DNA from: Lachnospiraceae bacterium
GTDB lineage: Bacteria > Bacillota > Clostridia > Lachnospirales > Lachnospiraceae
Direction of reading: 5' to 3'
DNA: 41,751 nt
Assembly (NCBI GenBank): GCA_017514845.1
Contig: JAFWIM010000050.1
Coordinates: forward strand, 1 to 41,751
Part shown: piece by piece, positions 18,922 through 41,636 of the stretch
How positions within the stretch are numbered: position 1 is the stretch's first letter
Layout: each line of letters opens with the position of its first letter
Notes under the pieces: model-generated
What the model saw: only the letters and a program-made list of their open reading frames with translations
Databases searched by the model: none
Told to the model about the DNA's origin: nothing
Program-made: the position numbers and the translations under genes

Positions 18922-19114
18922 TAGTTCAGGCAGGCTGCCTTGAAGTTTTAAGCCTGTCGCAAACATCATCTTCATCGAAAAACGCAGGTCCTGCTTTGAG
19001 CTTAAAAGATGCTCATGCATCTTTTGATCTCTCGGTCAGACCTGCAATGTTTTTCTCACGAAGATGAATGCTTTGCGCCGATTGCCAAATTATTCAAGCA
19101 GCCTGTCTGAACTA
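18922..19114 (+). repeat. Long-stem palindromic element, copy A (family 1)
   Basis: A 193-bp imperfect palindrome. The outer 17 nt (18922-18938) pair with 19098-19114 with one G-T wobble. A middle stem pairs the CATCTTCATCGAAAAA side (about 18958-18982) with GTTTTTCTCACGAAGATG (about 19049-19077). GCAGGTC (18984-18990) pairs with GACCTGC (19039-19045), and the tip AAAAGATGC (19004-19012) with GCATCTTTT (19017-19025). The unpaired core GATCTCTCGGTC (19026-19037) is identical in copy B. Folding as RNA downstream of ackA is likely. No coding frame is supported. Confidence 0.85.
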
Positions 19115-19134
19115 AATTGCGGCTTTAGACCCGC

Positions 19135-19172
19135 CGCAAACATCACATTGTTTAGCAGCCTACATGAACTGT
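19135..19172 (+). repeat. Internally deleted remnant of the long-stem element
   Basis: CCGCAAACATCAC (19135-19147) repeats the 5' interior of copy A (18958-18968), and AGCAGCCTACATGAACTG (from 19155) repeats its 3' end (19097-19112) with two changes. The middle of the element is missing. This looks like a deletion derivative lying directly after copy A. Confidence 0.5.
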
Positions 19173-19214
19173 AAAAAACACAGACACAAGTCTGAAAATT
19201 TATAAAATTTGCAG

Positions 19215-19244
19215 TTGACAAGTGTCGAGCCTTCTATGTATAAT
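19215..19244 (+). promoter_or_regulatory. Consensus sigma-A promoter for rpmF
   Basis: TTGACA at 19215-19220 and TATAAT at 19239-19244 with an 18-nt spacer, about 35 bp before the rpmF start. Both hexamers are perfect, as expected for a ribosomal protein gene. Confidence 0.9.
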
Positions 19245-19278
19245 AGTGCAGATGTCTAAAGGATAGGAGGTGTTAAGT

Positions 19279-19467
19279 ATGTCCATTTGTCCGAAGAATA
19301 AACATTGTTCTGCAAGACGTGACAAGTCCAGAGCAGGTCATTGGAAGATGACAGCTCCGACACTGGTCAAGTGCAGCAAGTGTGGTGCTCTGACAGTACC
19401 GCATCGCGTCTGCAAAGCCTGCGGATCTTATAATAAAAGAGAGATCATTAAACAGGATGTAGATTAA
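19279..19467 (+). CDS. rpmF: 50S ribosomal protein L32
   Basis: A 62-residue large-subunit protein. It has the zinc-ribbon form of L32 with CSKCG and CKACG pairs. The ATG at 19279 has TAGGAGG upstream. The usual neighbour DUF177 (YceD), normally just before rpmF, is missing; the ackA-rpmF gap instead holds the long-stem element, its remnant and a consensus promoter. The gene ends at its own terminator (19531-19561). Confidence 0.95.
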   Translation: MSICPKNKHCSARRDKSRAGHWKMTAPTLVKCSKCGALTVPHRVCKACGSYNKREIIKQDVD

Positions 19468-19530
19468 TTTTCGTAAATGTTTAACTGTGCACAGTAATAT
19501 AAGTTCAACGTACGAAGAGCAGACCAGAAG

Positions 19531-19561
19531 GCTGCCGCCGGGTTCGGCGGCAGCTTTTTTG
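19531..19561 (+). terminator. Terminator after rpmF
   Basis: GCTGCCGCCG (19531-19540) pairs perfectly with CGGCGGCAGC (19545-19554) around a GGTT tetraloop, followed by T6. It isolates rpmF from acpP. The next 140 bp to acpP show no clear promoter and only weak pairing. Confidence 0.95.
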
Positions 19562-19702
19562 TAACATTAATACGTCAAAACCATCCGTGTACGCGCGAAG
19601 CGGCTTTGACCGGCACAGTAGGATTCCGGCGAGTCAGAACAGATCCTTAGGGCGAGGTCTGTCCGCAGGAGCCATTCTGGTATAGATGCAGGGAGGTCCA
19701 TT

Positions 19703-19933
19703 ATGGAGTATGAGAAGATCGTCAGAATAATCCATGAGGTAATGGGAATCAGAGAAGAAGAAATAACCCTAAGATTGTCCTTTTACGACGACCTCGGAGC
19801 GAACTCTCTGGATGTGTATCAGATCGTCACAGCGCTGGAGGATGCATTTGACCTTGAAATCTCGACTGCCGATGTAGAGCATATCGACACCGTCGAGGAT
19901 GCGGTGCGGGCGCTGAAGTCCGCAAGGGGATAA
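19703..19933 (+). CDS. acpP: Acyl carrier protein
   Basis: A 76-residue carrier of growing fatty-acid chains on a phosphopantetheine arm. The attachment serine lies in DDLGANSLD (Ser about 36). Most ACPs have GADSLD; here Asn replaces the Asp just before the serine, a residue often contacted by the transferase, so a specialised or second ACP is possible. GGGAGG precedes the ATG. rnc starts 8 bp after the stop. The plsX and fab genes often found here are absent. Confidence 0.9.
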   Translation: MEYEKIVRIIHEVMGIREEEITLRLSFYDDLGANSLDVYQIVTALEDAFDLEISTADVEHIDTVEDAVRALKSARG

Positions 19934-19941
19934 TCTGATCG

Positions 19942-20640
19942 ATGAGAAAAGACATTAGAAAACTAATGGGGAAAATCGGCTACGAGTTCAAGAATGTCGA
20001 TCTCCTGAAGACGGCGGTGACACATACATCGTATGCCAACGAACACCGGCGGGAAAACGTTAAACACAACGAGCGCCTCGAATTTCTCGGGGATGCAGTC
20101 CTCGAGACTGTAAGCTCGGAATACTTATACAGACTGTATCCGGATAAGGGAGAGGGTGAACTCTCGACCATGCGGGCCAGTATGGTATGTGAGCCTTCTC
20201 TTGCCATCTGCGCCAGGGATATGGGACTCCCTGATTTTCTGCGCCTCGGAAAAGGAGAGGAGCTGATGCGGGGACGCGAGAAGGACTCGATCACATCGGA
20301 TGCGACAGAGGCAGTCATCGGGGCAATCTATCTCGATGGCGGATTCGAGGAGGCCAAGAAATTTGTCCTTGAATTCATACTCGGAGATCTGAAGACCGAG
20401 GACCTCTACAGGGATACGAAGACAGAGCTGCAGGAGATTGTCCAGAATTTCGGCAGCCATGTTGATTATGAGCTGGTCTCGGATGAGGGACCGGATCACG
20501 CCAAGACATTTGTAATCAGAGCGGTCGTCGACGGAAATGTCATAGGGACCGGAAGCGGAAGGACAAAAAAACAGGCCTCAAAGAACGCAGCCAAGGCCGG
20601 AGTGGAGTATTACAGACAGAATGTACTTAAAACGGATTGA
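19942..20640 (+). CDS. rnc: Ribonuclease III
   Basis: Cleaves double-stranded RNA in rRNA and mRNA maturation. The protein is 232 residues. The signature NERLEFLGDAVLE sits near residue 43 and DATEAVIGAIYLDGG near 113, giving the acidic metal ligands. The C-terminal double-stranded RNA-binding domain (about 157-228) ends with the KKQASKNAAKAGVEYY helix. The last 20 bp overlap the start of smc, so the two are translationally linked. The nearby long-stem elements would be natural substrates, which is inference. Confidence 0.96.
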   Translation: MRKDIRKLMGKIGYEFKNVDLLKTAVTHTSYANEHRRENVKHNERLEFLGDAVLETVSSEYLYRLYPDKGEGELSTMRASMVCEPSLAICARDMGLPDFLRLGKGEELMRGREKDSITSDATEAVIGAIYLDGGFEEAKKFVLEFILGDLKTEDLYRDTKTELQEIVQNFGSHVDYELVSDEGPDHAKTFVIRAVVDGNVIGTGSGRTKKQASKNAAKAGVEYYRQNVLKTD

Positions 20641-23600
20641 AATGCAGGGCTTTAAGTCCTTTGCCAACAAGATGGTCTTCGAGTTCCCGGAAGGAATCAC
20701 CGGCATCGTCGGTCCCAACGGGAGCGGCAAATCCAATGTCGCCGACGCGGTCAGGTGGGTTCTCGGAGAGCAGAGCGCCAAGCAGCTGCGAGGCGGCAAT
20801 ATGCAGGACGTCATATTTGCAGGCACAGCGGCCAGAAAGCCGCAGAGCTTCGCGTCGGTGGCAATCACATTTGACAATCATGACAAGGCGCTTGAAATCG
20901 GCTTTGAGGAAGTGACAGTCATGCGCCGGCTTTATCGGTCCGGCGAGAGTGAATACAAAATAAACGGACAAACAGTGCGTCTGCGCGATATACATGAGCT
21001 CTTCTACGACACCGGCATCGGAAAGGAAGGCTACTCCATCATCGGGCAGGGCCAGATCGAGAGGATTATTTCCGGCAAGGCCGACGAGCGTCGAGAGCTC
21101 TTCGACGAGGCGGCAGGAATCGTCAAATTCAAGAGACGTAAGGCTACGGCGCTCAAAAAGCTTGCCGAGGAACAGCAGAATCTGCTCCGCGTCACGGATA
21201 TTCTGACCGAGCTGACAGGACAGCTGGAGCCCCTGAAAAAGCAGTCAGAGGTTGCGAAAATCTATCTGGATAAGAGAGAACAGCTCAAGGGTCTGGATAT
21301 CAATCTTTTCCTCATCGATGACGAGAATATCGGAGGTCAGCTGGCTGAGATCGAGGAGAAAGCGCAGATCACTGACGGCGATATCGAAGAGACGACTAAA
21401 GCTCTCGATGACACAAAAGCCGAGTACGAGCGTATTGAAAATGAACTTTCGGAGCTCGACACTGAAATCGCTGAATTGAACAGTCGCGCTTCGCACAACA
21501 CGCTGATCCAACAGCAGTTGGCAGGCCAGATTGATCTGCTCAATGAGCAAATTCACGCTGTCAATCAAAACAGATCCCACTTCCTGGCAAGGCGTGAGAC
21601 AATCACTGAGGACTCGCGTAAGAAGCAGGAAGAACTTCGAGGACTCAAGGAAGAACTGAAAGAACTGAGGAAAACTGTTCAGGATTCGGAGGAGAATGAG
21701 CGCCGTGAGGAGCACAAACTCTCCGCAATCGAGATGGAGCTTTCGGATGTAAATGCGCAGATCTCAAAAGCCCAGAGCGACGTGATCGGAATGCTGAACA
21801 GCCGCGCGTCTGTCAAGGGAAAGATGCAGCGCTATGATGCTATGCTCGAGCAGATCGACATCAGGAAGAGCGAGCTCGGAAACCGCATGATTCGGTTTGC
21901 GGAGGAGGAAAATGACGCGAAGGTCAGGATTCAGAAGGCTGAGGAAACTCTGAAGGAAATAAAGGATCGAATTGCGAAGCTGCGCGAGGAGACCGCCGCA
22001 AAGGAGACCCAGGTAAACGCTTTGCAGGACCAGATACGGGAACTCAGCGAGGCGTATGAGCAGAATCAGACCGAATATCACCGGGATTCTTCGAGACTTG
22101 AATCGCTGAAAGCTCTGAGCGAGCACTATGAGGGCTACGGCAATGCCATCAAGAAAGTCATGGAGCAGAAGAAGCGAAATCCGGGAATTCATGGCGTGGT
22201 GGCTGACCTTGTATTTGCAGAACAGAAATATGAGGTGGCTATTGAGACAGCCCTCGGAGGAAGCCTTCGAAATATTGTCACGGACAATGAGAGCACGGCC
22301 AAGTATCTGATCGAGTATCTGAAGACGAACCGCTATGGACGGGCGACGTTCCTTCCGCTGACCAATGTGCGCGCAAGACGCAAGTTCGACAGACCGGAAG
22401 CGCTCAGGGAACCGGGTGTGATTGGTCTTGCAAATGAACTCTCCACCTCCGAACCCCGCTATGACGACCTCCGGGCACAGCTTCTCGGCAGAACGCTTGT
22501 CGTTGATACGATCGACAGCGCGATAAAAATCGGGCGAAAGTACAACCATCAGCTCTACATGGTCACCCTCGCCGGAGAATCCTTCTCACCGGGCGGCTCC
22601 ATCACCGGCGGTGCGTTCAGGAACAAGGACAACCTGCTCGGACGAAAGCGGGAGATCGACGAGCTTGAAAAGAGTGTGCGCAAGCTTGCTAAGACAATGA
22701 GCAAAGAGCAGGCTGAAATAGAGGAGAAGCGCAGGGAGCGAAATGCGCTGCGGGATGAGATCGTCGGGATCAGCAATAAGCTGCACGGAGAGAGCATCCG
22801 AGAGAATACAGCACAGATGTCGAGGAAACAGGCAGAGGATCAGATCCGAATGACCAGGCTCGACCGTCAGTCTCTCGACCGGGAGAATGTAGAGATCGAA
22901 ACGCAGATCAGTCAGATCAAAAAGTCTTCGAGCACTATTGAGCAGGAGCTTCTCGAGTCCGAGAAGGCTGAGAAATTGATCACACAGCAGAGTGCGGAGC
23001 TTGAGAAACGGGCGGAAAAGCTCATGGCTGACCGCGACAGCCAGACATCCGTGTTGGAGAATGTCCGTGTAAGAGCTGCCGCCCTTATGCAGAATAAAGG
23101 CTTTATCAGCACGAATATAGACCGACTCACTGGCGAACTAAAAGCTCTTCGGGAGGAGGATGCCGACATAACTGTAAATCTTGATGCAGGGACACTAGAT
23201 GAGAAGGAGAAACTTGAGCGGATCGAGACCATCAAGGGAACTATTGAAGCGGCCAAAGAAGAATCCATCAAAGATACCGCGAAGGCAGAGGAACTTGTAG
23301 CCAAGAAGAAAGAGCTTAATGACAGCCATAAGGGCTTTTTCGTGAAGAGAGATGAGCTATCTGCACGACTTGCGGAGCTTGACAAAGAGAGTTTCAGACT
23401 TCACACGCGCAAGGAAAAGATGGAAGAGTCAATGGAAGCGTCCGTTGCGCACCTCTGGGAAGAGTATGAGCTCACGCCGAACCAGGCAAGAAAGTTCCGT
23501 GATCCCGAGATGACGGACAGAGCTGCTATCCGCAGAGATATATCAAAGCTCAAGGAAGCGATAAAAAGGCTCGGCAACGTCAACGTCAACGCGATAGAAG

Positions 23601-24181
23601 ACTATAAGAATGTGGTAGAAAGACACACATTCCTGTCATCTCAGCACGCTGATCTCGTTGAGTCGGAAAAGCAGCTTGAGGGTATCATAAATGAGCTGGA
23701 TCGGGGAATGCGCAGGCAGTTCAATGAGAAATTTGCCGAGATCCGCAATGAATTCGACAGAGTCTTCAAGGCACTGTTCGGAGGTGGAAACGCTACCCTG
23801 GAGATCGACAAGGAGGCTGACGTGCTTGAGGCGGCGATCTCGATCATCGCTGAACCTCCGGGAAAGAAGCTTCAGAATATGATGCAGCTCTCCGGTGGGG
23901 AGAAGTCGCTGACGGCAATCTCACTGCTATTTGCAATACAGAATCTGAAACCGTCACCGTTCTGCCTTCTCGACGAGATTGAGGCGGCTCTGGACGATAA
24001 TAACGTTATCCGGTTCGCGGAATATTTGCATCGATTGACAAAAAGTACACAATTTATTGTCATTACGCACAGACGTGGTACAATGCAATCAGCGGATCGT
24101 CTCTACGGCATAACGATGCAGGAGAAGGGCGTGTCGGCGCTGGTGTCTGTCAACCTGATTGAGGATGAGCTTACTTCATAA
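20621..24181 (+). CDS. smc: Chromosome segregation ATPase SMC
   Basis: The core ATPase of bacterial condensin, compacting and aligning chromosome arms. 1186 residues, standard length. The Walker A GPNGSGKSN lies near residue 32, followed by a long coiled coil, a hinge (about 505-670, starting YGNAIKKVMEQKK), a second coiled coil, the ABC signature LSGGEKSLTAISLLFAI and Walker B CLLDEIEAALDD. The start overlaps the end of rnc by 20 bp. ftsY follows with a 13-bp gap. The partner genes scpA and scpB are not in the window. Confidence 0.98.
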   Translation: MYLKRIEMQGFKSFANKMVFEFPEGITGIVGPNGSGKSNVADAVRWVLGEQSAKQLRGGNMQDVIFAGTAARKPQSFASVAITFDNHDKALEIGFEEVTVMRRLYRSGESEYKINGQTVRLRDIHELFYDTGIGKEGYSIIGQGQIERIISGKADERRELFDEAAGIVKFKRRKATALKKLAEEQQNLLRVTDILTELTGQLEPLKKQSEVAKIYLDKREQLKGLDINLFLIDDENIGGQLAEIEEKAQITDGDIEETTKALDDTKAEYERIENELSELDTEIAELNSRASHNTLIQQQLAGQIDLLNEQIHAVNQNRSHFLARRETITEDSRKKQEELRGLKEELKELRKTVQDSEENERREEHKLSAIEMELSDVNAQISKAQSDVIGMLNSRASVKGKMQRYDAMLEQIDIRKSELGNRMIRFAEEENDAKVRIQKAEETLKEIKDRIAKLREETAAKETQVNALQDQIRELSEAYEQNQTEYHRDSSRLESLKALSEHYEGYGNAIKKVMEQKKRNPGIHGVVADLVFAEQKYEVAIETALGGSLRNIVTDNESTAKYLIEYLKTNRYGRATFLPLTNVRARRKFDRPEALREPGVIGLANELSTSEPRYDDLRAQLLGRTLVVDTIDSAIKIGRKYNHQLYMVTLAGESFSPGGSITGGAFRNKDNLLGRKREIDELEKSVRKLAKTMSKEQAEIEEKRRERNALRDEIVGISNKLHGESIRENTAQMSRKQAEDQIRMTRLDRQSLDRENVEIETQISQIKKSSSTIEQELLESEKAEKLITQQSAELEKRAEKLMADRDSQTSVLENVRVRAAALMQNKGFISTNIDRLTGELKALREEDADITVNLDAGTLDEKEKLERIETIKGTIEAAKEESIKDTAKAEELVAKKKELNDSHKGFFVKRDELSARLAELDKESFRLHTRKEKMEESMEASVAHLWEEYELTPNQARKFRDPEMTDRAAIRRDISKLKEAIKRLGNVNVNAIEDYKNVVERHTFLSSQHADLVESEKQLEGIINELDRGMRRQFNEKFAEIRNEFDRVFKALFGGGNATLEIDKEADVLEAAISIIAEPPGKKLQNMMQLSGGEKSLTAISLLFAIQNLKPSPFCLLDEIEAALDDNNVIRFAEYLHRLTKSTQFIVITHRRGTMQSADRLYGITMQEKGVSALVSVNLIEDELTS

Positions 24182-24194
24182 AGAAAGGGGAGCC

Positions 24195-25109
24195 ATGGGA
24201 TTTTTTGATAAATTAAAGGCAGGTCTTACCAAATCACGCTCGAATGTGGGCGAGGGAGTCAACACTGTTTTCAGCACCTATGATAAGATAGACGATGATT
24301 TCTATGACGAGCTGGAAGAGATTCTTGTCATGGCTGACGTAGGTATCAAGACGACAGATATAATTCTTCAGAACCTGAAGAAAAAAGTCAAGGAGCAGCG
24401 CATTAAGAGCGCGCATGAGTGCAAGAAGCTGCTCATGGACACGATCAAGGAGCAGATGCGGGTCAACGAGGCAGACTTTGCTTTCGAGAGAGAAAAGACT
24501 GTTCTCCTGATGATCGGCGTCAACGGTGTCGGCAAGACGACTACTGTCGGCAAGCTTGCCAACCTCTACCGCAGGCAGGGAAAGAAAGTGCTTGTCGCCG
24601 CTGCGGACACATTCAGAGCCGGAGCCACAGAGCAGCTGCTTGAGTGGACGAAGCGCGCGCAGGTCCCATGCATTTCCGCGAGTGAAGGAGCGGATCCCGG
24701 CGCGGTCGTCTTTGACGCGATTTCAGCTGCCAAAGCCCGTGATATAGACATCCTGATGATTGACACAGCAGGTCGTCTCAACAACAAGAAGAATCTCATG
24801 AAAGAGATGAGCAAGATTTACAAGATTCTTGCGAGAGAATACGGCTATGTCCACATTGAGACCCTGATCGTGCTCGACGGCACGACAGGTCAGAACGCTC
24901 TGGCTCAGGCCCGAGACTTTGAGGAGATCACGGCTATCACCGGCATCGTGCTGACAAAGCTGGACGGCACCGCCAAGGGCGGTATCGCGATTGCAATTCA
25001 GTCGGAGCTGGGCTTCCCGGTGAAATACATCGGTGTGGGCGAGCAGATTGACGATATGCAGAGATTTAACTCGGATGAGTTTGTCGATGCGCTGTTTGCG
25101 GATGACTGA
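24195..25109 (+). CDS. ftsY: Signal recognition particle receptor FtsY
   Basis: GTPase that docks ribosome-SRP complexes at the membrane. 304 residues from ATG 24195; an earlier in-frame ATG at 24159 lies inside smc. It consists of the N and G domains only, without the long acidic A domain of E. coli FtsY, as usual in Firmicutes. Motifs: GVNGVGKTTTVGKLA (P-loop), DTFRAGATEQL, DTAGR, TKLDGTAKGG and a C-terminal GVGEQIDDMQRF. The smc-ftsY pair is conserved; the commonly following ylxM-ffh are not here. Confidence 0.97.
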   Translation: MGFFDKLKAGLTKSRSNVGEGVNTVFSTYDKIDDDFYDELEEILVMADVGIKTTDIILQNLKKKVKEQRIKSAHECKKLLMDTIKEQMRVNEADFAFEREKTVLLMIGVNGVGKTTTVGKLANLYRRQGKKVLVAAADTFRAGATEQLLEWTKRAQVPCISASEGADPGAVVFDAISAAKARDIDILMIDTAGRLNNKKNLMKEMSKIYKILAREYGYVHIETLIVLDGTTGQNALAQARDFEEITAITGIVLTKLDGTAKGGIAIAIQSELGFPVKYIGVGEQIDDMQRFNSDEFVDALFADD

Positions 25110-25113
25110 TATA

Positions 25114-25163
25114 GGTGCTTCGCACTATGCGCGGAGCGGCAAAAATGCCGAGGCGTTCTTGAT
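25114..25163 (+). repeat. Short interspersed repeat, copy 2 (family 2)
   Basis: The sequence from GGTGCTTCGCAC to GCGTTCTTGAT begins 4 bp after the ftsY stop and matches 12586-12634 closely. GTGC/GCAC and GGCA/TGCC can form small hairpins. Confidence 0.7.
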
Positions 25164-25183
25164 TTAAATGATTTTTGTGTTGG

Positions 25184-25213
25184 GGCTGTCGCGTTAGTGC
25201 GGCAGTCTCTTTT
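25184..25213 (+). terminator. Terminator after ftsY
   Basis: CTGTCGC (25186-25192) pairs with GCGGCAG (25199-25205) with one G-T wobble, followed by TCTCTTTT. It lies 75 bp after ftsY, beyond the family-2 repeat. Confidence 0.7.
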
Positions 25214-25572
25214 GCTTATTGAGTGGCAGCAGTCGTCTTTGTGCCATGCGGTGCTCTTAGACTCACTATGAACCGGAATGAAGCCGAAGAGTCAGAAGGC
25301 AACTGCAAACTGAAGAAATCAAGAAGATGGTGCCTTTGGAAAAATGTTAGATATATAGAAAAGTTATTACCAGTTAAATATGTGGTTTTGCGGTCTCAGA
25401 TGCGATATACTAAAACAATCTGAATAATATAATTGAAGCTCCATCATTTATAATGCATGTCATATAAAGCATTTAGTATAGTTTACTCTATCAAGTGAAA
25501 AATACATAGTTCCATATTCATAGGAGATGCCGAACCGCATGTGGGTGGAGGCTCATCAGTGGAGACGAATAG
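25214..25572. other. AT-rich spacer before the methionine synthase genes
   Basis: Nothing convincing is encoded; a 66-codon frame at 25223-25423 has no ribosome binding site or family resemblance. The stretch is more AT-rich than its surroundings. A TATAAT at 25449-25454 lacks a well-spaced -35. The last 50 bp (25522-25556) contain GATG...CATC and other weak pairings that could be leader structure. I looked for cobalamin-box and S-box cores and found neither. Confidence 0.45.
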
Positions 25573-26259
25573 TTGAGAACCATGAATGTCGGAAAAATCA
25601 AACTCACACAATTGAATAGAACAGATGCTCTGCGTTACATGGGATATGGAACCCGAGAACCTGACAGCCAGACATCAGCCCTTCTAGATAAATGTGAGAG
25701 AGAGCTCCTCAGAGCAATCGATGGAAAGTATGTCTATAGAGTTTTCTCGCTGACTGACGGGCAAATCCCGGATTCAAAATTTCGTCTTGATGGGTATTCT
25801 GTAAAAAAGCACCTTCAAGGATGTACAAAAGTAATCTTTCTCTGTGCAACTCTCTCAGACGCTGTTGATAGACTCATACGCATAAAACAGATATCAGCAA
25901 TGGCAGAAGCAATCGTAGTTGACGCACTTGCCTCTGCGGCAGTTGAACAGGTATGTGATTTAGCTGAAAATGAAATTCTTCAGGGATTTCCGAATCTCGA
26001 GCATACATGGCGGTTTGGACTGGGCTACGGTGATTTTCCTCTGATCGGTCAAAGTAAGTTTCTTGACATATTGGATGCACCAAAACGTATTGGTGTTTGT
26101 GTCAATGAGAGTCTGCTGCTCACACCTACTAAATCTGTAACATGTGTCTTCGGTCTTGGCCATGACCTGTCTAAAGAGACAATGAAGAGCTGTGATATGT
26201 GCACGCTTGGTGGTCGCTGTACTTTCCGATTGAATGGCGGAACGTGTCAATCTTATTGA
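25573..26259 (+). CDS. Methionine synthase reactivation-domain protein
   Basis: A 228-residue stand-alone version of the vitamin B12-dependent methionine synthase activation domain, which in MetH binds S-adenosylmethionine and rescues oxidised cobalamin. Blocks NRTDALRYMGYG, AVVEQVCDLAENE-like and RFGLGYGDFPL fit the family. The C-terminus has a Cys-rich end (CDMC, GGRC, GGTC) seen in clostridial members and absent from E. coli MetH, which could hold an Fe-S cluster; that is inference. The start is either TTG 25573 (GGAG 8 nt upstream) or ATG 25582. The MetH encoded 175 bp downstream lacks this domain, so the two are a split enzyme. Confidence 0.85.
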   Translation: MRTMNVGKIKLTQLNRTDALRYMGYGTREPDSQTSALLDKCERELLRAIDGKYVYRVFSLTDGQIPDSKFRLDGYSVKKHLQGCTKVIFLCATLSDAVDRLIRIKQISAMAEAIVVDALASAAVEQVCDLAENEILQGFPNLEHTWRFGLGYGDFPLIGQSKFLDILDAPKRIGVCVNESLLLTPTKSVTCVFGLGHDLSKETMKSCDMCTLGGRCTFRLNGGTCQSY

Positions 26260-26434
26260 CCAGGACCTTCCAGGAAAGAATAAATCAAATATGCGTGCCG
26301 GGTGAGGCCATTGTGTAGGTGTGATTCATTGTATGATCGACACGTTATATAGGAAGACAGTCAAAAAAAAGGAAAAGATGACGTGCCATAAGTGGCTGAA
26401 GTGCAGGTGGAATATTGGGTTAGGAGGCAACTCG

Positions 26435-29323: not shown

Positions 29324-29327
29324 TAAG

Positions 29328-29364
29328 AATCGCCCCTACGTGTCAGAGATACGAAGGGGCGATT
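29328..29364. terminator. Convergent hairpin between metH and the MATE gene
   Basis: AATCGCCCC (29328-29336) pairs perfectly with GGGGCGATT (29356-29364). It sits 5 bp after metH and 56 bp from the end of the opposing gene. The U-tract is weak on both strands, so efficiency is uncertain. Confidence 0.65.
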
Positions 29365-29419
29365 TAAGTTATTTATCGTTAAATTGGCTGCGACAGTAGA
29401 AAATCCGACAAAGCAACAT

Positions 29420-30805
29420 TCATGAATTTACCTGCCCTGCGATACTTCCCTCCATCGGCTTCACAATCTCGTTATAAATTTTTCTGAAGAACATTACTGT
29501 AAGAACCATAGAAATGACTTCAGCTATCAAAAATGAGAACCACACATTGGTCAGGACGCCCGTCTGTGCCAGAAGCCATGCGACAGGAATAAGCACGACC
29601 AACTGCCTGCATATTGAAATAATCAGTGAATAGACACTCTTTGAAAATGCCTGGAAAACCGATCCGAGCACGATTCCTACTGCAGCCAGCGGGAAATGAA
29701 TACTGATTATTCGAAGCGCCGGCTCGCCGATCTCCAGCATGTGCTCTGATGCATTAAAGAAGCCAAGCAGCGTTTGCGGTGCCGCATGGAATAGAATTGT
29801 TCCGCAGCACATGATGCCAAATGCAATCGAAACAGAGAACTTCAATGCCTCATCAATTCTCGGCTTATTGCGAGCGCCAAAGTTATAGGCAAGGACAGGA
29901 ATCAGACCGTTATTCAAGCCGAACACCGGCATAAATATGAAGCTCTGGAGCTTGAAATATACACCGAAGACCGCTGTCGCCGTCTCTGAGAAGACCATAA
30001 GGATGCGGTTCATTGAATAGGTCATTATCGAGCCGATCGACATCATCAGGATGGACGGAACGCCCACGTAATAAATCTTCCTAATAATCGCAAAATCCGG
30101 TGTGATAATCGATTCAAACGAGAGCTTGATCTCTGTATTGAACTTGATATTCAGGAAGAGTCCGAGTATTCCCGCGACACTTTGACCTATGACGGTGGCG
30201 ATGGCGGCTCCGGCGACACCCATTTGCGGCATACCGAACAAGCCGAAGATCATGATCGGGTCGAGTATGATGTTGATGATTGCACCTGTCATCTGTGAGG
30301 CCATACTGAAGATTGTTTTTCCGGTCGACTGCAGAAGTCGTTCTGACATGACCTGGAACATGAGTCCCAGAGAACACATACAGACGATTTTCAGATAAGT
30401 GATGGACATCTCAGCGATACTCGCATTGCCTGTCTGGGAGTTGATGAACGGTTTAGCCAGCAACAGCCCCAACAGAAAAAATAAGGCGAAATTGACGAAT
30501 GAGATGAGCAGAGCTGAATTGGCAGCCTTATCTGAACGATCAAAGCGTTTCTCGCCGAGTGATTTGCTTAGAAGTGCATTCACACCTACACCCGTGCCCG
30601 ACGAAACAGCAATCATCAGGCTCTGCAATGGGAAAGCGAGAGTGACCGCTGTCAAAGCGTTCTCACTCAATTGAGCGACGAAGATGCTGTCGACGACGTT
30701 GTATAATGCCTGCACCAGCATCGACGCCATCATGGGCAGTGACATTGTAATGATTAGCTTTTTGACGGGCATGACACCCATCTTGTTTTCCTGTCTGTTT
30801 TCCAT
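29420..30805 (-). CDS. MATE family multidrug/solute exporter
   Basis: A 461-residue membrane antiporter with about twelve helices, of the MATE fold (NorM/DinF/MepA-like). The N-terminal block PVKKLIITMSLPMMASMLVQALYNVVDSIFV and the matching second half (IRKIYYVGVPSILMMSIGSIM) reflect the internal duplication. It would export organic cations or drugs using sodium or protons; the substrate cannot be read. Its ATG directly abuts the stop of the upstream minus-strand gene and its ribosome binding site lies inside that gene, so the two are one operon. Confidence 0.92.
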   Translation of the reverse strand: MENRQENKMGVMPVKKLIITMSLPMMASMLVQALYNVVDSIFVAQLSENALTAVTLAFPLQSLMIAVSSGTGVGVNALLSKSLGEKRFDRSDKAANSALLISFVNFALFFLLGLLLAKPFINSQTGNASIAEMSITYLKIVCMCSLGLMFQVMSERLLQSTGKTIFSMASQMTGAIINIILDPIMIFGLFGMPQMGVAGAAIATVIGQSVAGILGLFLNIKFNTEIKLSFESIITPDFAIIRKIYYVGVPSILMMSIGSIMTYSMNRILMVFSETATAVFGVYFKLQSFIFMPVFGLNNGLIPVLAYNFGARNKPRIDEALKFSVSIAFGIMCCGTILFHAAPQTLLGFFNASEHMLEIGEPALRIISIHFPLAAVGIVLGSVFQAFSKSVYSLIISICRQLVVLIPVAWLLAQTGVLTNVWFSFLIAEVISMVLTVMFFRKIYNEIVKPMEGSIAGQVNS

Positions 30806-33800
30806 TTATACTTCCTGCATCCTCTTTTCCGCAGTCGTCAGCATCAGCTTTATTCGATTGAGCTGATTCACTTCAGAAGCGCCCGGATCGTAGTCGACAG
30901 CGGCTATATTGGCTTCCGGATAGCGGCGGCGAAGCTCCTTGATGACGCCTTTGCCCACGATATGATTCGGCAGGCATGCAAACGGCTGTATGCACACGAT
31001 GTTCGGGACCCCGTTATGTATGAGCTCAAGCATCTCACCGGTCAGGAACCATCCCTCGCCGGTCTGATTGCCAGTGGAAGCGATGGGCTCGGCCATGCGG
31101 GCAAGCTCTCGAATATCCGCGGGTGGACTGAAGTGCTTGCTCTTTTCAAATTCACGCGTCGCTGCGCCCCGTGCCACCTTTATGAACTCAAGACCGGCAT
31201 TAGTAAGGAACGACTTCGACGGCGCGAAACCGAGGTTCTTGACCTTGAACTTAAGGTTGTAGAACGAATAGCTGAAGAAGTCCAGAAGATCCGGGACCAC
31301 AGCCTCCGCACCCTCCTGCTCAAGCAGGTCGACCAGATGGTTGTTGGCTGCCGGTGAGAACTTGACCAGAATCTCGCCTACGATACCAACGCGCGGTTTT
31401 TTCTCATCCGTGATTGGAAGATTATCAAAATCGTGGATGATGCTTCGGCAAAGCTGATTGAACTTTGCAGGCATCGGCCTTTTGCCTGTGAGGAACTTCG
31501 TGCACACGGCATTCCACTTCTCATACATGGCATTGGCGGAGCCCTTCTTCCTCTCATAAGGCCTCATCCTGTAAAGACACTTCATGAGAACATCTCCCAA
31601 AATGAGAGCGTACACTGCCTTGGTAAGGAGCGGTAGTGTGAGCTTGAAGCCCGGCTGCTTCTCCAGACCGCTCATGTTGACGGATATGACCGGAACCTGT
31701 CCCATATCAGCCTTCTTGAGAGCTCTCCTGATAAAACCGATATAGTTTGAAGCACGGCACCCGCCGCCGGTCTGGGTGATGATGACGGCGACCTTGTCAA
31801 GATCGTATTTGCCCGAATTCAGAGCATCCATGATCTGCCCGATGACCAGAAGGGAGGGATAGCAGGCATCATTATTTACATACTTAAGACCTGTATCGAT
31901 GGCCTGACGGTTATCGTTGCCAAGGACGACAAGATTGTAGCCGCAGGATCTCGCAGCGGGTTCGACGAGCCTGAAGTGGATCGGTGACATCTGCGGAGCA
32001 AGGATCGTATAATTCTTTCGCATGTCCTCGGTGAACGGCACGCGCTTAAATTCAGAGGAAACAATGTGACGCTCTGTCGGATTTTCCTTGCGGACGCGAA
32101 TAGCTGCGAGCAGTGAACGGACACGAATCCTTGCAGCGCCAAGATTATTGACCTCATCGATTTTAAGGCATGTGTAGATCTTGCCGCTATTGGAAAGAAT
32201 CTCCTGCACCTCATCCGTGGTAACGGCATCGAGACCGCAGCCGAACGAATTCAGCTGAATAATATCAAGATTATCACGAGTCTTAACAAAATTGGCGGCG
32301 GCATACAGTCTCGTGTGGTACATCCACTGATCATTGACGCGCAGAGGACGCTCGATCTGAGCGAGATGAGAGATAGAATCCTCTGAGAGAACCGCCATGC
32401 CGTAGGAGTTGATGAGCTCCGGAATGCCGTGGTTGATCTCGGGGTCAATGTGGTACGGTCTTCCGCACAGAACGATGCCGTGTCTGCCGGTGTCGCGCAG
32501 ATAAGCGAGCGTCTCCTCGCCCTTGCGCCTGATGTCCTCGCGGCTCTTCATGAGCTCTGCCCACGCATCGGCCGCAGCACCCCTGACATCTTCCTTATTT
32601 ATATCATTGAAAATGTCAACAAGCCTGTCTGTCAGGATTTTTTCGCTGGTGAATGCGAGGAACGGGTCCATGAACTTGATCTCCGGATCGCGCAGTTCCT
32701 CCACATTGTTTTTAATATTCTCCGCGTAGGAGGTGACGATCGGGCAGTTGTAATGGTTGACTGCCCCCTTGAACTCTTCACGCTCATAGGGAACACACGG
32801 ATAGAAAATGAACTTGACCCCGTTCCGAAGGAGCCAGGAAATATGGCCGTGAGCAAGCTTTGCCGGATAGCATTCGGATTCACTCGGGATCGACTCGATG
32901 CCCATCTCATAAATCTTTCTTGTTGAAGTCGGAGAGAGGACGACCTCGTAGCCGAGCTTCGTAAAGAACGTGAACCAGAACGGATAATTCTCGAACATAT
33001 TGAGGACTCTCGGGATACCGACTTTGCCTCGCGGAGCTTTGCGCTTCGGGACGAAATAGCCGTTCTTCATAGAGCCTTCATTTGCAGCACCTGATCCGTA
33101 CGGGGACTCGTAACCGAAGATCCTGTGATACTTAAAATCGTACAGGTTGGGCAGATTCTCCTTGTTTTTCTGCTTGCCGATACCTTTCTCGCAGCGGTTG
33201 CCGGAAATATAGCGTCGTCCGCCGGAAAACTTGTTGATGGTAAGGCGGCAGTTATTGGTGCAGCCGTTGCAGCGCGCATTTGCAGTCGTATAGGTAAACG
33301 CGCGTATCTCATCAATCGAGAGCATGGAGGAGCCCTCTGTCTTGTTCGCACGCTCTTTAGCAATCAGCGCCGCACCGAATGCGCCCATGATGCCGGCAAT
33401 ATCCGGACGAATCACTTCCGCTCCGGCGATCAGCTCGAAGCTTCGAAGGACTGCATCGTTGTAGAATGTGCCGCCCTGCACGACAATGTTCTTGCCGAGC
33501 TCGGAAGCGTCGGACACCTTGATGACCTTGTACAGCGCATTCTTGATGACAGAATATGCAAGCCCCGCGGAGATATCAGCGACAGTAGCGCCTTCCTTCT
33601 GAGCCTGCTTGACCTTGGAATTCATGAACACAGTGCACCGCGTTCCGAGGTCGATTGGATTTTCTGCAAACAGTGCTGCCTTCGCGAAATCCTGAACCGA
33701 ATAATTGAGTGTCTTCGCGAAGTTCTCGATGAAAGAACCGCAGCCCGACGAGCAGGCCTCGTTCAACATGACGTCATCGACAGCGTGATCTTTGATTCTG

Positions 33801-35137
33801 ATACACTTCATGTCCTGGCCGCCGATATCAAGTATGCAGTCGACCTCCGGATCAAAGAACTGGGCAGCATAATAGTGGGAGATGGTCTCGACCTCTCCCT
33901 CATCGAGCATGAGCGCGGATTTGATCAGAGCTTCTCCGTAACCTGTGGAACAGGACCCGGCAATTGTGATGCCCTTCGGCATGTGATCATAGATCTCCTT
34001 AATTGCGTCGATCGATGTCTGCAGCGGATTCCCGTTGTTGCTTCCGTAAGTAGAATAGAGAAGCTCACCGTTCTCGGAAATGAGCGCGGTCTTAGTCGTC
34101 GTACTGCCGGCGTCGATGCCGAGGTATGCTCGACCCTTATATTTTGCCAGATCTCCCTTGGACACCTGATAACGGTCCTGGCGGGCTTTGAATTTATCAT
34201 AAGAAGCTTTGTCCGCAAATAGCGGCGCGAGGCGAGAAACCTCAAACTCCATCTTTATGCCGTCAGAAAGTCTCTTCACAAGGCTCCCGAGAGTCTGTTT
34301 CTCCATCCCATCCACATATTTAATCTCAGAAGTGCGCGCTTCGCTCTTTGCGGCGTTCACGGCCTCCATGGCAGCCCCGCTGGCAGCGAAGAGATGAGAA
34401 TTGTCAGGGATAATGGCATGCTCGTCATCAAGCCTCAGTGTCTCGATGAAACGTACGCGAAGCTGGTCAAGGAAATGCAGCGGACCGCCGAGGAACGCTA
34501 CATGGCCGCGAATCGGCTTGCCGCAGGCAAGACCTGAAATCGTCTGGTTGACTACTGCCTGGAAAATCGAGGCTGCCAGATCCTCCCGGGTCGCACCTTC
34601 GTTGATCAGAGGCTGTATATCTGTCTTGGCAAAAACACCGCACCTTGCGGCGATCGGATAAATCGATTTGTGATGCGCAGCATACTCATTGAGACCGGAT
34701 GCGTCAGTTTGAAGAAGGTCAGCCATCTGGTCGATAAAAGAACCTGTGCCGCCGGCACAGATACCGTTCATTCGCTGCTCAATATTTCCCTTTTCGAAAT
34801 AGATGATTTTCGCGTCCTCGCCGCCAAGCTCAATAGCCACGTCCGTTTTGGGACAATTGGCCTTAAGGCAGGTGGAGACAGCGATAACTTCCTGAACGAA
34901 CGGCACTCCCAGATGCTTTGCCAGGGTAAGTCCGCCGGAACCTGTGATAGCGGGGGAGACAGAAAGATCCCCCAGCTTCTCATAAGCTTCGGCAATCAGT
35001 CTCCCGGCGGTCTCCTGAATTTCAGCATAGTGGCGCTGATAATCGGAAAAGAGGAGAGTATTTGCATCATCAATCACAGCGATCTTGACTGTTGTGGAAC
35101 CGATGTCAATACCGAGGAAATAGTTTTTGTTGCTCAT
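30806..35137 (-). CDS. Fused double acyl-CoA dehydratase activase / DUF2229 protein
   Basis: A 1443-residue fusion. Two BadF/BcrA-type ATPase modules come first ([12 protein letters not shown] and [12 protein letters not shown] as phosphate loops). Each has the Cys positions that, in HgdC-type activases, hold a [4Fe-4S] cluster at a dimer interface (CAGGTGSF...RCGVF and CSSGCGSF...RCTVF), so here both halves may form an internal dimer. A CNGCTNNC cluster follows, then DUF2229 and 2-hydroxyglutaryl-CoA dehydratase D-like regions with further conserved Cys. The family is widespread in Clostridia, but the substrate is unknown; ATP-driven low-potential electron transfer is the likely chemistry. 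The start is ATG 35135-35137 with GAGGT upstream, not the longer frame to 35173. Confidence 0.88.
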
Positions 35138-35272
35138 TTGTACCTCATAATAAAACGTTCGTCCGGCGGTCAAAAGGGGCGTATGATAGCTGTGGTTGTC
35201 ATGCAGGCCTGCCGGATTATCCCCTATGCCTGCAAAAAGCTATACTGCATTCTATATCTGCACAGTATAAGA

Positions 35273-35301
35273 ATTATATAGCTACTCATAAAAAAAGACA
35301 A
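35273..35301 (-). promoter_or_regulatory. Promoter for the activase-MATE operon
   Basis: On the minus strand, TTGTCT (35296-35301) and a perfect TATAAT (35273-35278) with a 17-nt spacer, giving a leader of about 130 nt. The leader shows only modest pairing (GCAGG/CCTGC). Confidence 0.65.
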
Positions 35302-35350
35302 GCGACATATTTCATTCTCTGTCTCAATAAGATGACCCGAGCGGTCTTCA

Positions 35351-35377
35351 TTGACTTTTCTTCACAAACACTATACA
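35351..35377 (+). promoter_or_regulatory. Possible tgt promoter
   Basis: TTGACT (35351-35356) and TATACA (35372-35377), spacer 15, about 65 bp before tgt. The spacer is short, so this is tentative. Confidence 0.4.
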
Positions 35378-35443
35378 CTGATTTGGAATGCATTTGAACA
35401 GCACAAGAATGGAAATATCAGGAAGAGAGAATACTGAAAACTT

Positions 35444-36589
35444 ATGTATGAAGTGATAAAACAAGAAGGAAGAGCCAAAAGGGCAAGACTCACGACTGTC
35501 CACGGCACGATTGAGACCCCGGTCTTCATGAATGTCGGAACTGTTGCCGCTATTAAGGGCGGTGTCTCATCCCCTGAACTGCACAGTCTCAAGACACAGG
35601 TTGAACTGTGCAACACGTTTCATCTGCATGTGAGGCCGGGAGACAAGATCGTCAAACAGCTCGGCGGCGTGAGAAAATTCATGAACTGGGACGGTCCGGT
35701 CCTCACGGACTCCGGCGGTTTCCAGGTCTTTTCACTGGCCAAACTTCGCAAAATCAAGGAGGAAGGCGTGACCTTCCGCTCACACATCGACGGTCACAAG
35801 ATCTTTATGGGACCCGAGGAGAGTATGCAGATCCAGTCAAATCTGGGGTCTACGATCGCCATGGCTTTTGATGAATGCCCGAATGCTCTCGCTGAGAGGC
35901 ATTACGTCGAGCAGTCTGTCGACAGGACTACAAGGTGGCTTGTCCGCTGCAAGGCGGAGATGGCAAGGCTGAACAGCCTTCCGGATACCGTCAACCCACA
36001 CCAGATGCTGTTCGGAATAAATCAGGGAGCAATCTATCCGGATATCCGCATACGCCACGCGGAAGAAATTTCAGCCCTTGACCTCGACGGGTACGGGATC
36101 GGAGGTCTTGCAGTCGGCGAGACTCACGAGCAAATGTATCATATCCTCGATGAGGTCGTGCCTCATTTGCCGGTAAATAAGCCTACGTATCTTATGGGAG
36201 TAGGAACGCCGGCCAACATCCTCGAGGGCGTAGAGCGCGGCGTGGACTTTTTCGACTGTGTATATCCGTCCCGAAACGGGAGACATGGTCACGTTTATAC
36301 GAACCACGGGCATCTCAATCTGTTCAACGCAAAGTATGAGCTGGATGAGCGGCCGATCGAGGAAGGCTGTCAGTGCCCCGCATGCAGGAATCATTCGAGG
36401 GCTTATATCAGGCATTTGCTCAAAGCCAACGAGATGCTTGGCATGCGCCTTGCGGTCATGCACAACCTTTACTTCTACAATAATATGATGGAGGAGATCC
36501 GCGACGCGCTGGATGCAGGCGAATTCGCTTCTTATAAAAAGAGGAAGCTTGCGGGGCTCATGGCAACGGTTCAGACAGGCAGCACCTAA
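35444..36589 (+). CDS. tgt: tRNA-guanine transglycosylase
   Basis: Exchanges guanine 34 for preQ1 in GUN-anticodon tRNAs, the committed step of queuosine insertion. 381 residues. DSGGFQVFSL and the nucleophile region DCVYPSRNGRHGHVYT are intact, and the zinc site reads CQCPAC with a later His. The ribosome binding site is weak (GGAAGAGAG, rather far from the ATG). The last eight codons (VQTGST at the end) coincide with the outer stem of long-stem element copy B, so the C-terminus is partly element-derived. yajC follows after the element, a conserved tgt-yajC order. Confidence 0.96.
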   Translation: MYEVIKQEGRAKRARLTTVHGTIETPVFMNVGTVAAIKGGVSSPELHSLKTQVELCNTFHLHVRPGDKIVKQLGGVRKFMNWDGPVLTDSGGFQVFSLAKLRKIKEEGVTFRSHIDGHKIFMGPEESMQIQSNLGSTIAMAFDECPNALAERHYVEQSVDRTTRWLVRCKAEMARLNSLPDTVNPHQMLFGINQGAIYPDIRIRHAEEISALDLDGYGIGGLAVGETHEQMYHILDEVVPHLPVNKPTYLMGVGTPANILEGVERGVDFFDCVYPSRNGRHGHVYTNHGHLNLFNAKYELDERPIEEGCQCPACRNHSRAYIRHLLKANEMLGMRLAVMHNLYFYNNMMEEIRDALDAGEFASYKKRKLAGLMATVQTGST

Positions 36590-36766
36590 GCTTCATAAAC
36601 CGGCACAAACATTATCTTCATCGAAAAGCGTAAGTCCTTCCCTGCGAGCTGATCAAACGCTTACGCGTTTTCTGATCTCTCGGTCGGACTTACAATGCTT
36701 TTCTCACGAAGATGGATGTCTTGCTGCCGGAATAGCTAAGTGTGAGATGTGCCTGTCTGAACTGTT
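36565..36766 (+). repeat. Long-stem palindromic element, copy B (family 1)
   Basis: A 202-bp relative of copy A (18922-19114). The outer stem 36565-36580 pairs with 36751-36766 (one wobble). GTAAGTCC (36630-36637) pairs with GGACTTAC (36686-36693), and the tip AAACGC (36655-36660) with GCGTTT (36665-36670). The core GATCTCTCGGTC (36674-36685) and the ATCTTCATCGAAAA and TTTTCTCACGAAGATG arms match copy A. The stem sequences differ from A yet remain paired. The first 25 bp overlap the end of tgt. Confidence 0.85.
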
Positions 36767-41495: not shown

Positions 41496-41555
41496 AGATA
41501 TATGGGATTCGGATCGGAATCATATAGTTGCCGATCCGGATCCTGTCCTATATCT
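41496..41555 (+). other. Long hairpin after the mrp gene
   Basis: AGATATA (41496-41502) pairs with TATATCT (41549-41555), and GGATTCGGATCGG (41505-41517) with CCGATCCGGATCC (41531-41543), one wobble. It lies 31 bp after the stop with no U-tract, and its 3' arm runs into copy C of the long-stem element. Confidence 0.7.
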
Positions 41556-41636
41556 TCATCGAAAAGCGCTGGTCACTACCCTGTGAGCCCAAAATGCTAA
41601 AGCTTTTTGGGTTACCATTCACGGGTTAACCGTTAG
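41552..41636 (+). repeat. Long-stem element, partial copy C (family 1)
   Basis: The 5' half matches copies A and B: ATCTTCATCGAAAAGCG (41552-41568), then GTC, CCCTG and GAGC at the same spacing as in B. The tip CCCAAAA/TTTTGGG (41588-41610) is a new stem sequence. The 3' half (GATCTCTCGGTC and TTTTCTCACGAAGATG) is missing or replaced; only loose pairing such as CCCTGTGA with TCACGGG remains. Confidence 0.6.

What the first reader, a model, noticed from the sequence alone, without database searches (positions are those of the whole stretch)
18922..36766. A roughly 200-bp long-stem element in two full copies with compensatory changes
Seen directly: 18922-19114 and 36565-36766 share the same order of arms and an identical unpaired core GATCTCTCGGTC. 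The stems differ in sequence but stay paired. GCAGGTC/GACCTGC in copy A becomes GTAAGTC/GACTTAC in copy B, two compensated pairs. The A-T next to the GAAAA arm becomes G-C (AAAAACG/TGTTTTT against AAAAGCG/TGCTTTT). The tip is AAAAGATGC/GCATCTTTT in one and AAACGC/GCGTTT in the other. Both copies have the same orientation and lie between a housekeeping gene and the promoter of the next gene. Paired covariation plus a conserved loop points to selection on a folded RNA or a cruciform-recognised DNA. I do not recognise it as a named RNA class.
Basis: partly seen in the sequence, partly recalled or inferred. Interest (0 to 1): 0.78.

Follow-up and report, generated by a model that had tools for sequence, protein, structure and literature searches.

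The report
Flipping hairpin repeat in rumen bacteria
The two elements are copies of an uncatalogued hairpin-forming DNA repeat that occurs about a hundred times between the genes of a few related gut Lachnospiraceae; its paired arms change together, one part hardly changes, and its inside is often flipped in place between sister species.

Summary
In detail: copies A and B share one ~190-bp imperfect hairpin with compensated stem changes. A long-tip form (1-23 matches per genome) occurs in six further species of the genus. Nothing turned up among 392 genomes of the order except the window's own, nor in Rfam, viral contigs, phages or plasmids. Covariation exceeds shuffles and slides. Strand relative to genes is random (57/50). 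In 29 orthologous pairs a 45-nt block is 97% identical, middle arms 76%, flanks 81%; its unpaired columns are 95%. In 9 of 39 orthologous pairs the inside is inverted in place. Compensated arms plus spacer inversion are the published footprint of replication template switching (PMC8604942, PMC8794818), so the covariation alone does not prove a functional RNA; the conserved unpaired block does point to selection. Best reading: a clade-specific hairpin repeat of the bcr1/REPIN/MITE kind; what moves it and what reads it are unknown.

The parts
18922..19114 (+). copy A, complete element, between ackA and rpmF
   Evidence: also in this spacer in G003 and G025, not in the seven other species shown
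18922..18937 (+). copy A left outer arm (terminal inverted repeat)
   Evidence: family profile GTRRCAGTTCAGACAGGCTG
19099..19114 (+). copy A right outer arm
18958..19076 (+). copy A core used for covariance model R1
18967..18984 (+). copy A 5' half of the near-invariant block (CATCTTC-ATC-GAAAAACG)
19046..19066 (+). copy A 3' half of the near-invariant block (AATG-TTTTTC-TCAC-GAAGATG)
19026..19037 (+). copy A GATCTCTCGGTC, one side of internal loop 2
36565..36766 (+). copy B, complete element, between tgt and yajC; left arm overlaps the 3' end of tgt
36604..36724 (+). copy B core
36751..36766 (+). copy B right outer arm
41552..41610 (+). degenerate partial copy (profile positions 48-107)

Best explanation
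A clade-specific, non-coding, dispersed hairpin repeat, MITE-like or bcr1-like in behaviour. It spread to many intergenic sites, a large share of them before three sister species split (shown: copy number, presence and absence at sites, orthology in samples). An unidentified trans-acting activity moved it (inferred). Once in place, the arms of each hairpin are now and then copied from one another by replication template switching: this makes compensated stem changes, overwrites one internal loop in some copies, and flips everything between the outer arms in place (outcomes shown; mechanism inferred from published signatures). On top of this, selection keeps an about 45-nt block with an asymmetric internal loop nearly unchanged (conservation shown; selection inferred). 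Because orientation to genes is random and changes in place, the block is most likely read in an orientation-independent way, for example by a protein that binds the hairpin or the duplex, rather than as a sense leader or terminator of one neighbour (inferred).
For: Copies: 112 distinct places at E <= 2.5e-14 among the 132 matches listed for G000 (150 of 1549 candidates scored). Site history: the ackA-rpmF spacer has it in G000, G003 and G025, not in G020, G022, G032, G062, G011, G001 or G035. Orthology: the ortholog is the best of 71 G025 copies in 21 of 29 pairs. In-place inversion: 9 of 39 full pairs G000-G025, 2 of 15 G003-G000, 1 of 18 G003-G025 (the last lies in a spacer with two copies, so its pairing is uncertain). 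Alignments show outer arms kept and the inside reversed. The C125 inversion is polarised to G000 because G003 and G025 agree. Loop 2 near-homogenised in 22 of 221 copies. Constraint in 29 pairs: block 0.972, rest of core 0.89, tip 0.851, outer arms 0.82, flanks 0.81 (gaps aside), middle arms 0.756; unpaired block columns 0.949 vs unpaired middle-arm columns 0.756. Covariation: 0 of 500 shuffles reach the score in either alignment. Context: 107 tandem, 19 convergent, 19 divergent; strand 57/50.
Against: No clear target-site duplication and no autonomous partner in the stretches held. Y1 transposase matches occur in 8 of 9 carriers against 14 of 33 other genus genomes, which leaves an IS200/IS605- or RAYT-like mobiliser open, though carrier G011 has none. 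Exchange of cores between copies happens (two inverted pairs have alike middle arms but unlike cores) and could help keep the block uniform. PMC8604942 also reports that short inverted repeats in proteobacteria are more conserved than their surroundings and ascribes it to template switching, so conservation of paired columns is not by itself selection. The loop is not invariant: 38 of 213 copies differ from ATC/TCAC. In 8 of 29 pairs, copy A among them, the ortholog is not the best match. The long-tip form has 98.4% paired cells, more than homogenisation alone need give. Private differences are also low in middle arms (14/873) and tip (6/693), so that test is coarse.
Confidence: 0.6

Rival explanations
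1. A functional structured RNA (or RNA-protein particle), expressed from many loci, whose fold is kept by selection; copies carry their own activity so orientation to genes does not matter.
For: Strong covariation across species with few broken pairs in the long-tip form (23 of 52 pairs with double changes, 98.4% of cells paired); three conserved asymmetric internal loops in 37 long-tip copies; a single match in G011; mismatches in core helix columns 61-75 are 52 A-C type against 5 G-U type, which would be G-U on the complementary strand.
Against: No Rfam match. Columns 80-86 show the opposite bias (124 G-U against 7 A-C type) and the outer arms none (104 against 116), so no strand is consistently favoured. 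Orientation flips in place. I did not search the element for a promoter of its own, and no expression data are at hand.
Confidence: 0.22
2. Ordinary decaying MITEs: neutral after insertion, alike only because recently spread.
For: Terminal inverted repeats, high copy number, clade restriction, fragments and nested copies; losses and absences at some sites.
Against: The block is 97.2% identical between orthologs whose middle arms and flanks are 76% and 81% identical, its unpaired columns included; its asymmetric loop is exact in 175 of 213 copies and homogenised in none.
Confidence: 0.12
3. An invertible DNA switch: a site-specific recombinase acts on the outer arms and flips the inside to regulate neighbours.
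For: In-place inversion with outer arms retained in 9 of 39 pairs; two tandem copies share one outer arm.
Against: No gene fits inside a ~150-bp interior, and scores of sites would switch; in two pairs read by eye (C153, C125) the breakpoints fall at the inner end of the outer arms, next to GGCTG; no recombinase was identified or searched for.
Confidence: 0.06

Closest known systems
bcr1-bcr3 repeats of the Bacillus cereus group
   Same: Repeat limited to one bacterial group, mobile-element traits, 100-400 bp, bcr1 up to 130 copies (PMC6542083, passages read)
   Different: bcr mobility is linked there to a TTTAT motif; no such fixed flank seen here; in-place inversion is not in the passages read; sequences not compared; the original bcr papers seen only as references
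REPINs / REP doublets with RAYT transposases
   Same: Hairpin of two inverted ends, compensatory changes common on both sides of the hairpin (PMC3116915, passages read)
   Different: REPs are 20-40 bp palindromes tagged GTAG or CGTC (PMC3733652, title and start of abstract in a listing); here ~190 bp with GTRRCAGTTCAG ends and conserved internal loops
BOX, RUP and SPRITE repeats of pneumococcus
   Same: Small interspersed repeats with orthologous insertions across strains (PMC3049150, passages read)
   Different: Different ends and structure (recalled); in-place inversion not in the passages read
Template-switch mutations at inverted repeats
   Same: Arm homogenisation and spacer inversion (PMC8604942, passages read); multibase compensatory changes (PMC8794818, passages read)
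   Different: There yeast genes or rRNA hairpins with inverted spacers of a few bases; here ~150-bp interiors flip, in a repeat with about a hundred parallel copies

Membership tests
MITE | terminal inverted repeats | tested here: met
   GTRRCAGTTCAGACAGGCTG at both ends, 140 copies profiled
MITE | target-site duplication | tested here: inconclusive
   No fixed length; a small excess of 4-, 5- and 6-bp matches over three shuffles (11, 9, 6 against 4-5, 2, 1); some copies lie inside another inverted repeat
MITE | autonomous transposon with matching ends | tested here: inconclusive
   None seen among 20 arm matches away from elements in the G000 and G025 stretches held; whole genomes not scanned for it
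MITE | insertion polymorphism between relatives | tested here: met
   ackA-rpmF spacer; 5 of 14 G025 copies, two of them at one site, absent in G000
REPIN/REP | 20-40 bp palindrome with GTAG or CGTC tag | tested here: not met
   size and ends differ
REPIN/REP | RAYT (Y1) transposase in carrier genomes | tested here: inconclusive
   Y1_Tnp in 8 of 9 carriers and 14 of 33 other genus genomes, none in carrier G011; RAYTs not separated from IS200/IS605
Rfam RNA families | score at or above gathering threshold | tested here: not met
   whole window 0 matches; copy A stretch and nine related loci at lax E-values, every match below its gathering score
bcr1-type repeat | group-limited, high copy number, shared fold | tested here: met
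bcr1-type repeat | TTTAT repetition at the insertion site | tested here: not met
   base frequencies near flat beyond the arms in 140 copies; no separate motif search run
independent ncRNA gene | transcript with defined ends | not testable with these tools
   no expression data

The most novel reading that the evidence does not exclude
A SINE-like bacterial element: a rod-shaped RNA with three conserved asymmetric internal loops, read by a dedicated protein, that has been copied to about a hundred intergenic sites and is kept there by selection on the block, with orientation irrelevant.
Probability: 0.15. Interest if true: 0.85.

Novelty: new variant of a known kind. Interest (0 to 1): 0.52.

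Why it matters
About a hundred related hairpins per genome at orthologous sites in three sister species form a natural experiment: the same structure shows compensated pairs, arm overwriting, in-place inversion and a conserved unpaired block. That lets one ask how much stem covariation comes from mutation by template switching and how much from selection, a question that bears on covariation-based RNA discovery in general. It is also an uncatalogued, genome-wide intergenic repeat of gut Lachnospiraceae.

Tried and rejected
Rfam: nothing at threshold. Phages and plasmids and two exact viral pattern scans: nothing. Linked gene: ORFs round long-tip copies from loci L062-L126 (named MAG loci and unnamed-genome loci, some covering the same place) gave recurring clusters that look like ordinary cellular genes by eye, no shared transposase recognised (no family search run on them). 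Master copy with a partner gene: the lone long-tip copy of G025 lies between secY and adk, that of G011 between tgt and a long CoA-activase-like gene (names by eye from protein starts). Target-site duplications: none clear. Empty sites: of those inspected, C200 is a deletion between short direct repeats that left one arm; the others did not align cleanly. Strand of action from G-U against A-C mismatches: contradictory. The automatic orientation test gave 7 inverted of 29, two on poor flanks (0.49, 0.42); I rely on the flank mapping. A first loop-2 count used a faulty pattern and was redone: 22 near-homogenised, 154 asymmetric (5 of them part-way, TCAGTGAA), 34 in other classes and 11 unparsed, of 221. 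'Near-homogenised' means the complement of the family's usual 5' arm; in the copy shown the two arms differ slightly.

Sampling: most G025 and all G003 stretches were chosen round elements, so retention is overstated there. It is unbiased only for G025 contigs C1 and C7 (12 G000 elements: 10 full, 1 fragment, 1 absent; two of the 12 are tandem copies mapping to one site) and for G000 contigs C201 and C32 (whole) and C10, C200, C164 (nearly whole) (14 G025 elements: 7 full, 2 fragments, 5 absent, two of the 5 at one site). Of the 3 'absent' among 45 one is the secY-adk site, where G025 has its long-tip copy, and one is the C200 deletion scar.
Full report
What is there. Copies A and B are in the sequence as described and fold much more stably than shuffles (z -10.2 and -9.6). 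A search of the window's own genome gave many further copies on both strands. A covariance model R1 built from 31 cores listed 132 matches in the genome, of which 112 are distinct places at E <= 2.5e-14; the rest are 11 opposite-strand echoes, three weaker places at E < 0.01 and six at E 0.04-0.83 (my count, where 150 of 1549 candidates were scored, so 112 is a floor). The element is about 190-200 bp: outer arms GTRRCAGTTCAGACAGGCTG, variable middle arms, a core, and a variable tip stem. Of 161 copies of at least 150 bp in the G000 and G025 stretches, 145 could be placed between two called genes, 15 were at stretch ends and 1 fell inside a called ORF: 107 tandem, 19 convergent, 19 divergent, close to all spacers in these stretches (516, 56, 55). 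Strand relative to tandem genes is 57 same and 50 opposite; the median distance after the stop codon is 31 bp there (simple gene calls of my own).

Who has it. Of 61 genomes searched first, 9 matched, the window's own included, all in the same genus. With the long-tip model R2, the same 9 of 42 genus genomes matched, and 1 of 392 in the order, that one being the window's own genome (strict filters, so weak matches can be lost). R1 gave 108 matches in G003 and 150 (all that were scored) in G025, opposite-strand echoes included, and 0 in G001, G032 and G062. R2 matches in the six long-tip genomes number 1 (G011), 5 (G033), 5 (G035), 7 (G005), 19 (G022) and 23 (G020); G025 has one long-tip copy as well. 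A pattern for the long tip found 41 stretches among GTDB genomes: 39 in MAGs titled Lachnospiraceae, Clostridiales or Clostridia, and 2 (a Verrucomicrobia MAG and a Sulfitobacter) that I take as chance. One MAG's title says goat ileum; that RUG names mean rumen genomes is recalled. The G025 contig C4 has the same length as a contig of RUG13328. By acetate kinase the carriers fall with G001, G032 and G062 in one group of the genus (81-100% identical to the window's protein; the others with a match 77% or less; 5 of 42 without a match).

Structure. In 37 long-tip copies from nine MAGs, 98.4% of cells are standard pairs (shuffles 87.5%), 23 of 52 pairs have changes on both sides, and none of 500 shuffles reaches the covariation score of 0.312 (mean 0.120); sliding the partner collapses it. 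'Further pair types' did not exceed shuffles (283 of 500). Of the pattern matches in those loci, two at locus ends were not used and 41 were aligned; 39 distinct cores remained, and two truncated ones were dropped. In 30 copies of the window's form the score is 0.146 against 0.081, 0 of 500 on all five measures. The structures were derived from the same alignments, which favours them over slid versions. The long-tip form has three conserved asymmetric internal loops; the window's form lacks about 57 nt of the tip.

History at sites. The ackA-rpmF spacer holds the element in G000, G003 and G025 and is without it in the seven other species of the group that were shown. Mapping both flanks of G000 elements onto the G025 stretches gave 45 sites: 39 full, 3 fragments, 3 absent; of the absent, one is the secY-adk site, where G025 has its long-tip copy, and one is a deletion that left an arm. 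Most G025 stretches were chosen round elements, so this overstates retention. On G025 contigs fetched completely it is 10 full, 1 fragment and 1 absent of 12; in the other direction 7 full, 2 fragments and 5 absent of 14. In 21 of 29 pairs the ortholog is the best match among 71 G025 copies; the other 8, copy A among them (rank 29), have diverged or exchanged their core.

Inversion in place. In 9 of the 39 full pairs the element points the other way while both flanks are collinear. Six such alignments were looked at; in the two read most closely (C153, C125) the outer arms are kept and everything between them is reversed. G003 against G000 gave 2 inverted of 15 full pairs, G003 against G025 1 of 18, the latter in a spacer with two copies where pairing is uncertain. 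At the C125 site G003 agrees with G025, which places that inversion on the G000 lineage.

Mutation or selection. Published work shows that template switching between inverted-repeat arms causes both arm homogenisation and spacer inversion (PMC8604942, passages read) and that it can explain multibase compensatory changes in RNA hairpins (PMC8794818, passages read). Like outcomes are seen here: inversion as above, and 22 of 221 copies in which loop 2 (CTCTCGGTC) is replaced by the complement of the family's usual 5' arm, nearly that of their own. Conservation speaks for selection elsewhere. In 29 ortholog pairs the near-invariant block is 97.2% identical (36 differences in 1300), against 75.6% for middle arms, 82% for outer arms and 81% for 100-bp flanks, gaps aside. 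PMC8604942 notes that inverted repeats can be more conserved than their surroundings through template switching alone, so I looked at unpaired columns: 16 differences in 316 in the block (94.9%), 200 in 819 in the middle arms (75.6%), 73 in 204 in the outer arms. The asymmetric loop ATC/TCAC is exact in 175 of 213 parsed copies and homogenised in none. Exchange of cores between copies occurs and could help keep the block uniform, but would not obviously hold the block at 97.2% and the rest of the core at 89%.

What reads it is not known. Orientation is random and changes in place, so a job tied to one neighbour's sense transcript is unlikely for the family. Mismatch types gave contradictory strand signals. 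No linked gene was recognised and no autonomous element with the same ends was seen in the stretches held. Y1 transposase matches are commoner in carriers (8 of 9) than in other genus genomes (14 of 33), but one carrier has none.

Known or new. No Rfam family, and no paper describing it came up in searches, in a library that lacks most subscription journals. Of the papers, PMC2267715 was seen as outline and abstract, PMC6542083, PMC3049150, PMC3116915, PMC8604942 and PMC8794818 as passages, PMC3733652 as title and start of abstract in a listing; the original bcr1 papers only as references. It works like bcr1 repeats, REPINs and other small dispersed repeats, but fails the REP definition and meets the MITE definition only in part.

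Noticed in passing
G025:C7 148.2-148.5 kb (L153), G025:C18 66.2-66.5 kb (L177), G025:C24 4.1-4.5 kb (L183), G000:C162 3.2-3.5 kb (L203), L277 7150-7560: A second hairpin sequence (~100 bp, GCGTAGGCGACAAGCC...) sits in the tip of some copies, so hairpins nest inside hairpins.
   Followed up: partly
flanks of the copies in L002, L009, L021, L027 and L277: Some copies lie inside or beside another inverted repeat, GGGACGGTTCTTTTCACGTG..CACGTGAAAAGAACCGTCCC or close to it.
   Followed up: no
G025:C20 61860-62760 (L176): One copy carries about 670 bp of extra sequence in its tip while both arms still pair.
   Followed up: no
L020 1500-1877 (G000:C164): Two tandem copies share one 16-bp outer arm.
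   Followed up: no
L275 about 8977 and L200 2919-3097: In the secY-adk spacer G025 has its only long-tip copy and G000 has a short-tip copy; whether this is one insertion or two was not settled.
   Followed up: partly
window 36565-36589: The left arm of copy B supplies the last codons and stop of tgt, so an insertion may have changed the protein's end.
   Followed up: no
G025:C2 about 42.7-43.0 kb (L181): Six outer-arm matches at a 62-bp spacing near an element.
   Followed up: no
core helix columns 61-75 of the 159-copy alignment: Mismatches are 52 A-C type against 5 G-U type, the reverse of what a plus-strand RNA would favour, while columns 80-86 go the other way.
   Followed up: partly
Y1_Tnp matches, 42 genus genomes: Present in 8 of 9 carriers of the repeat and 14 of 33 other genomes; several matches are fragments at contig ends.
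   Followed up: no
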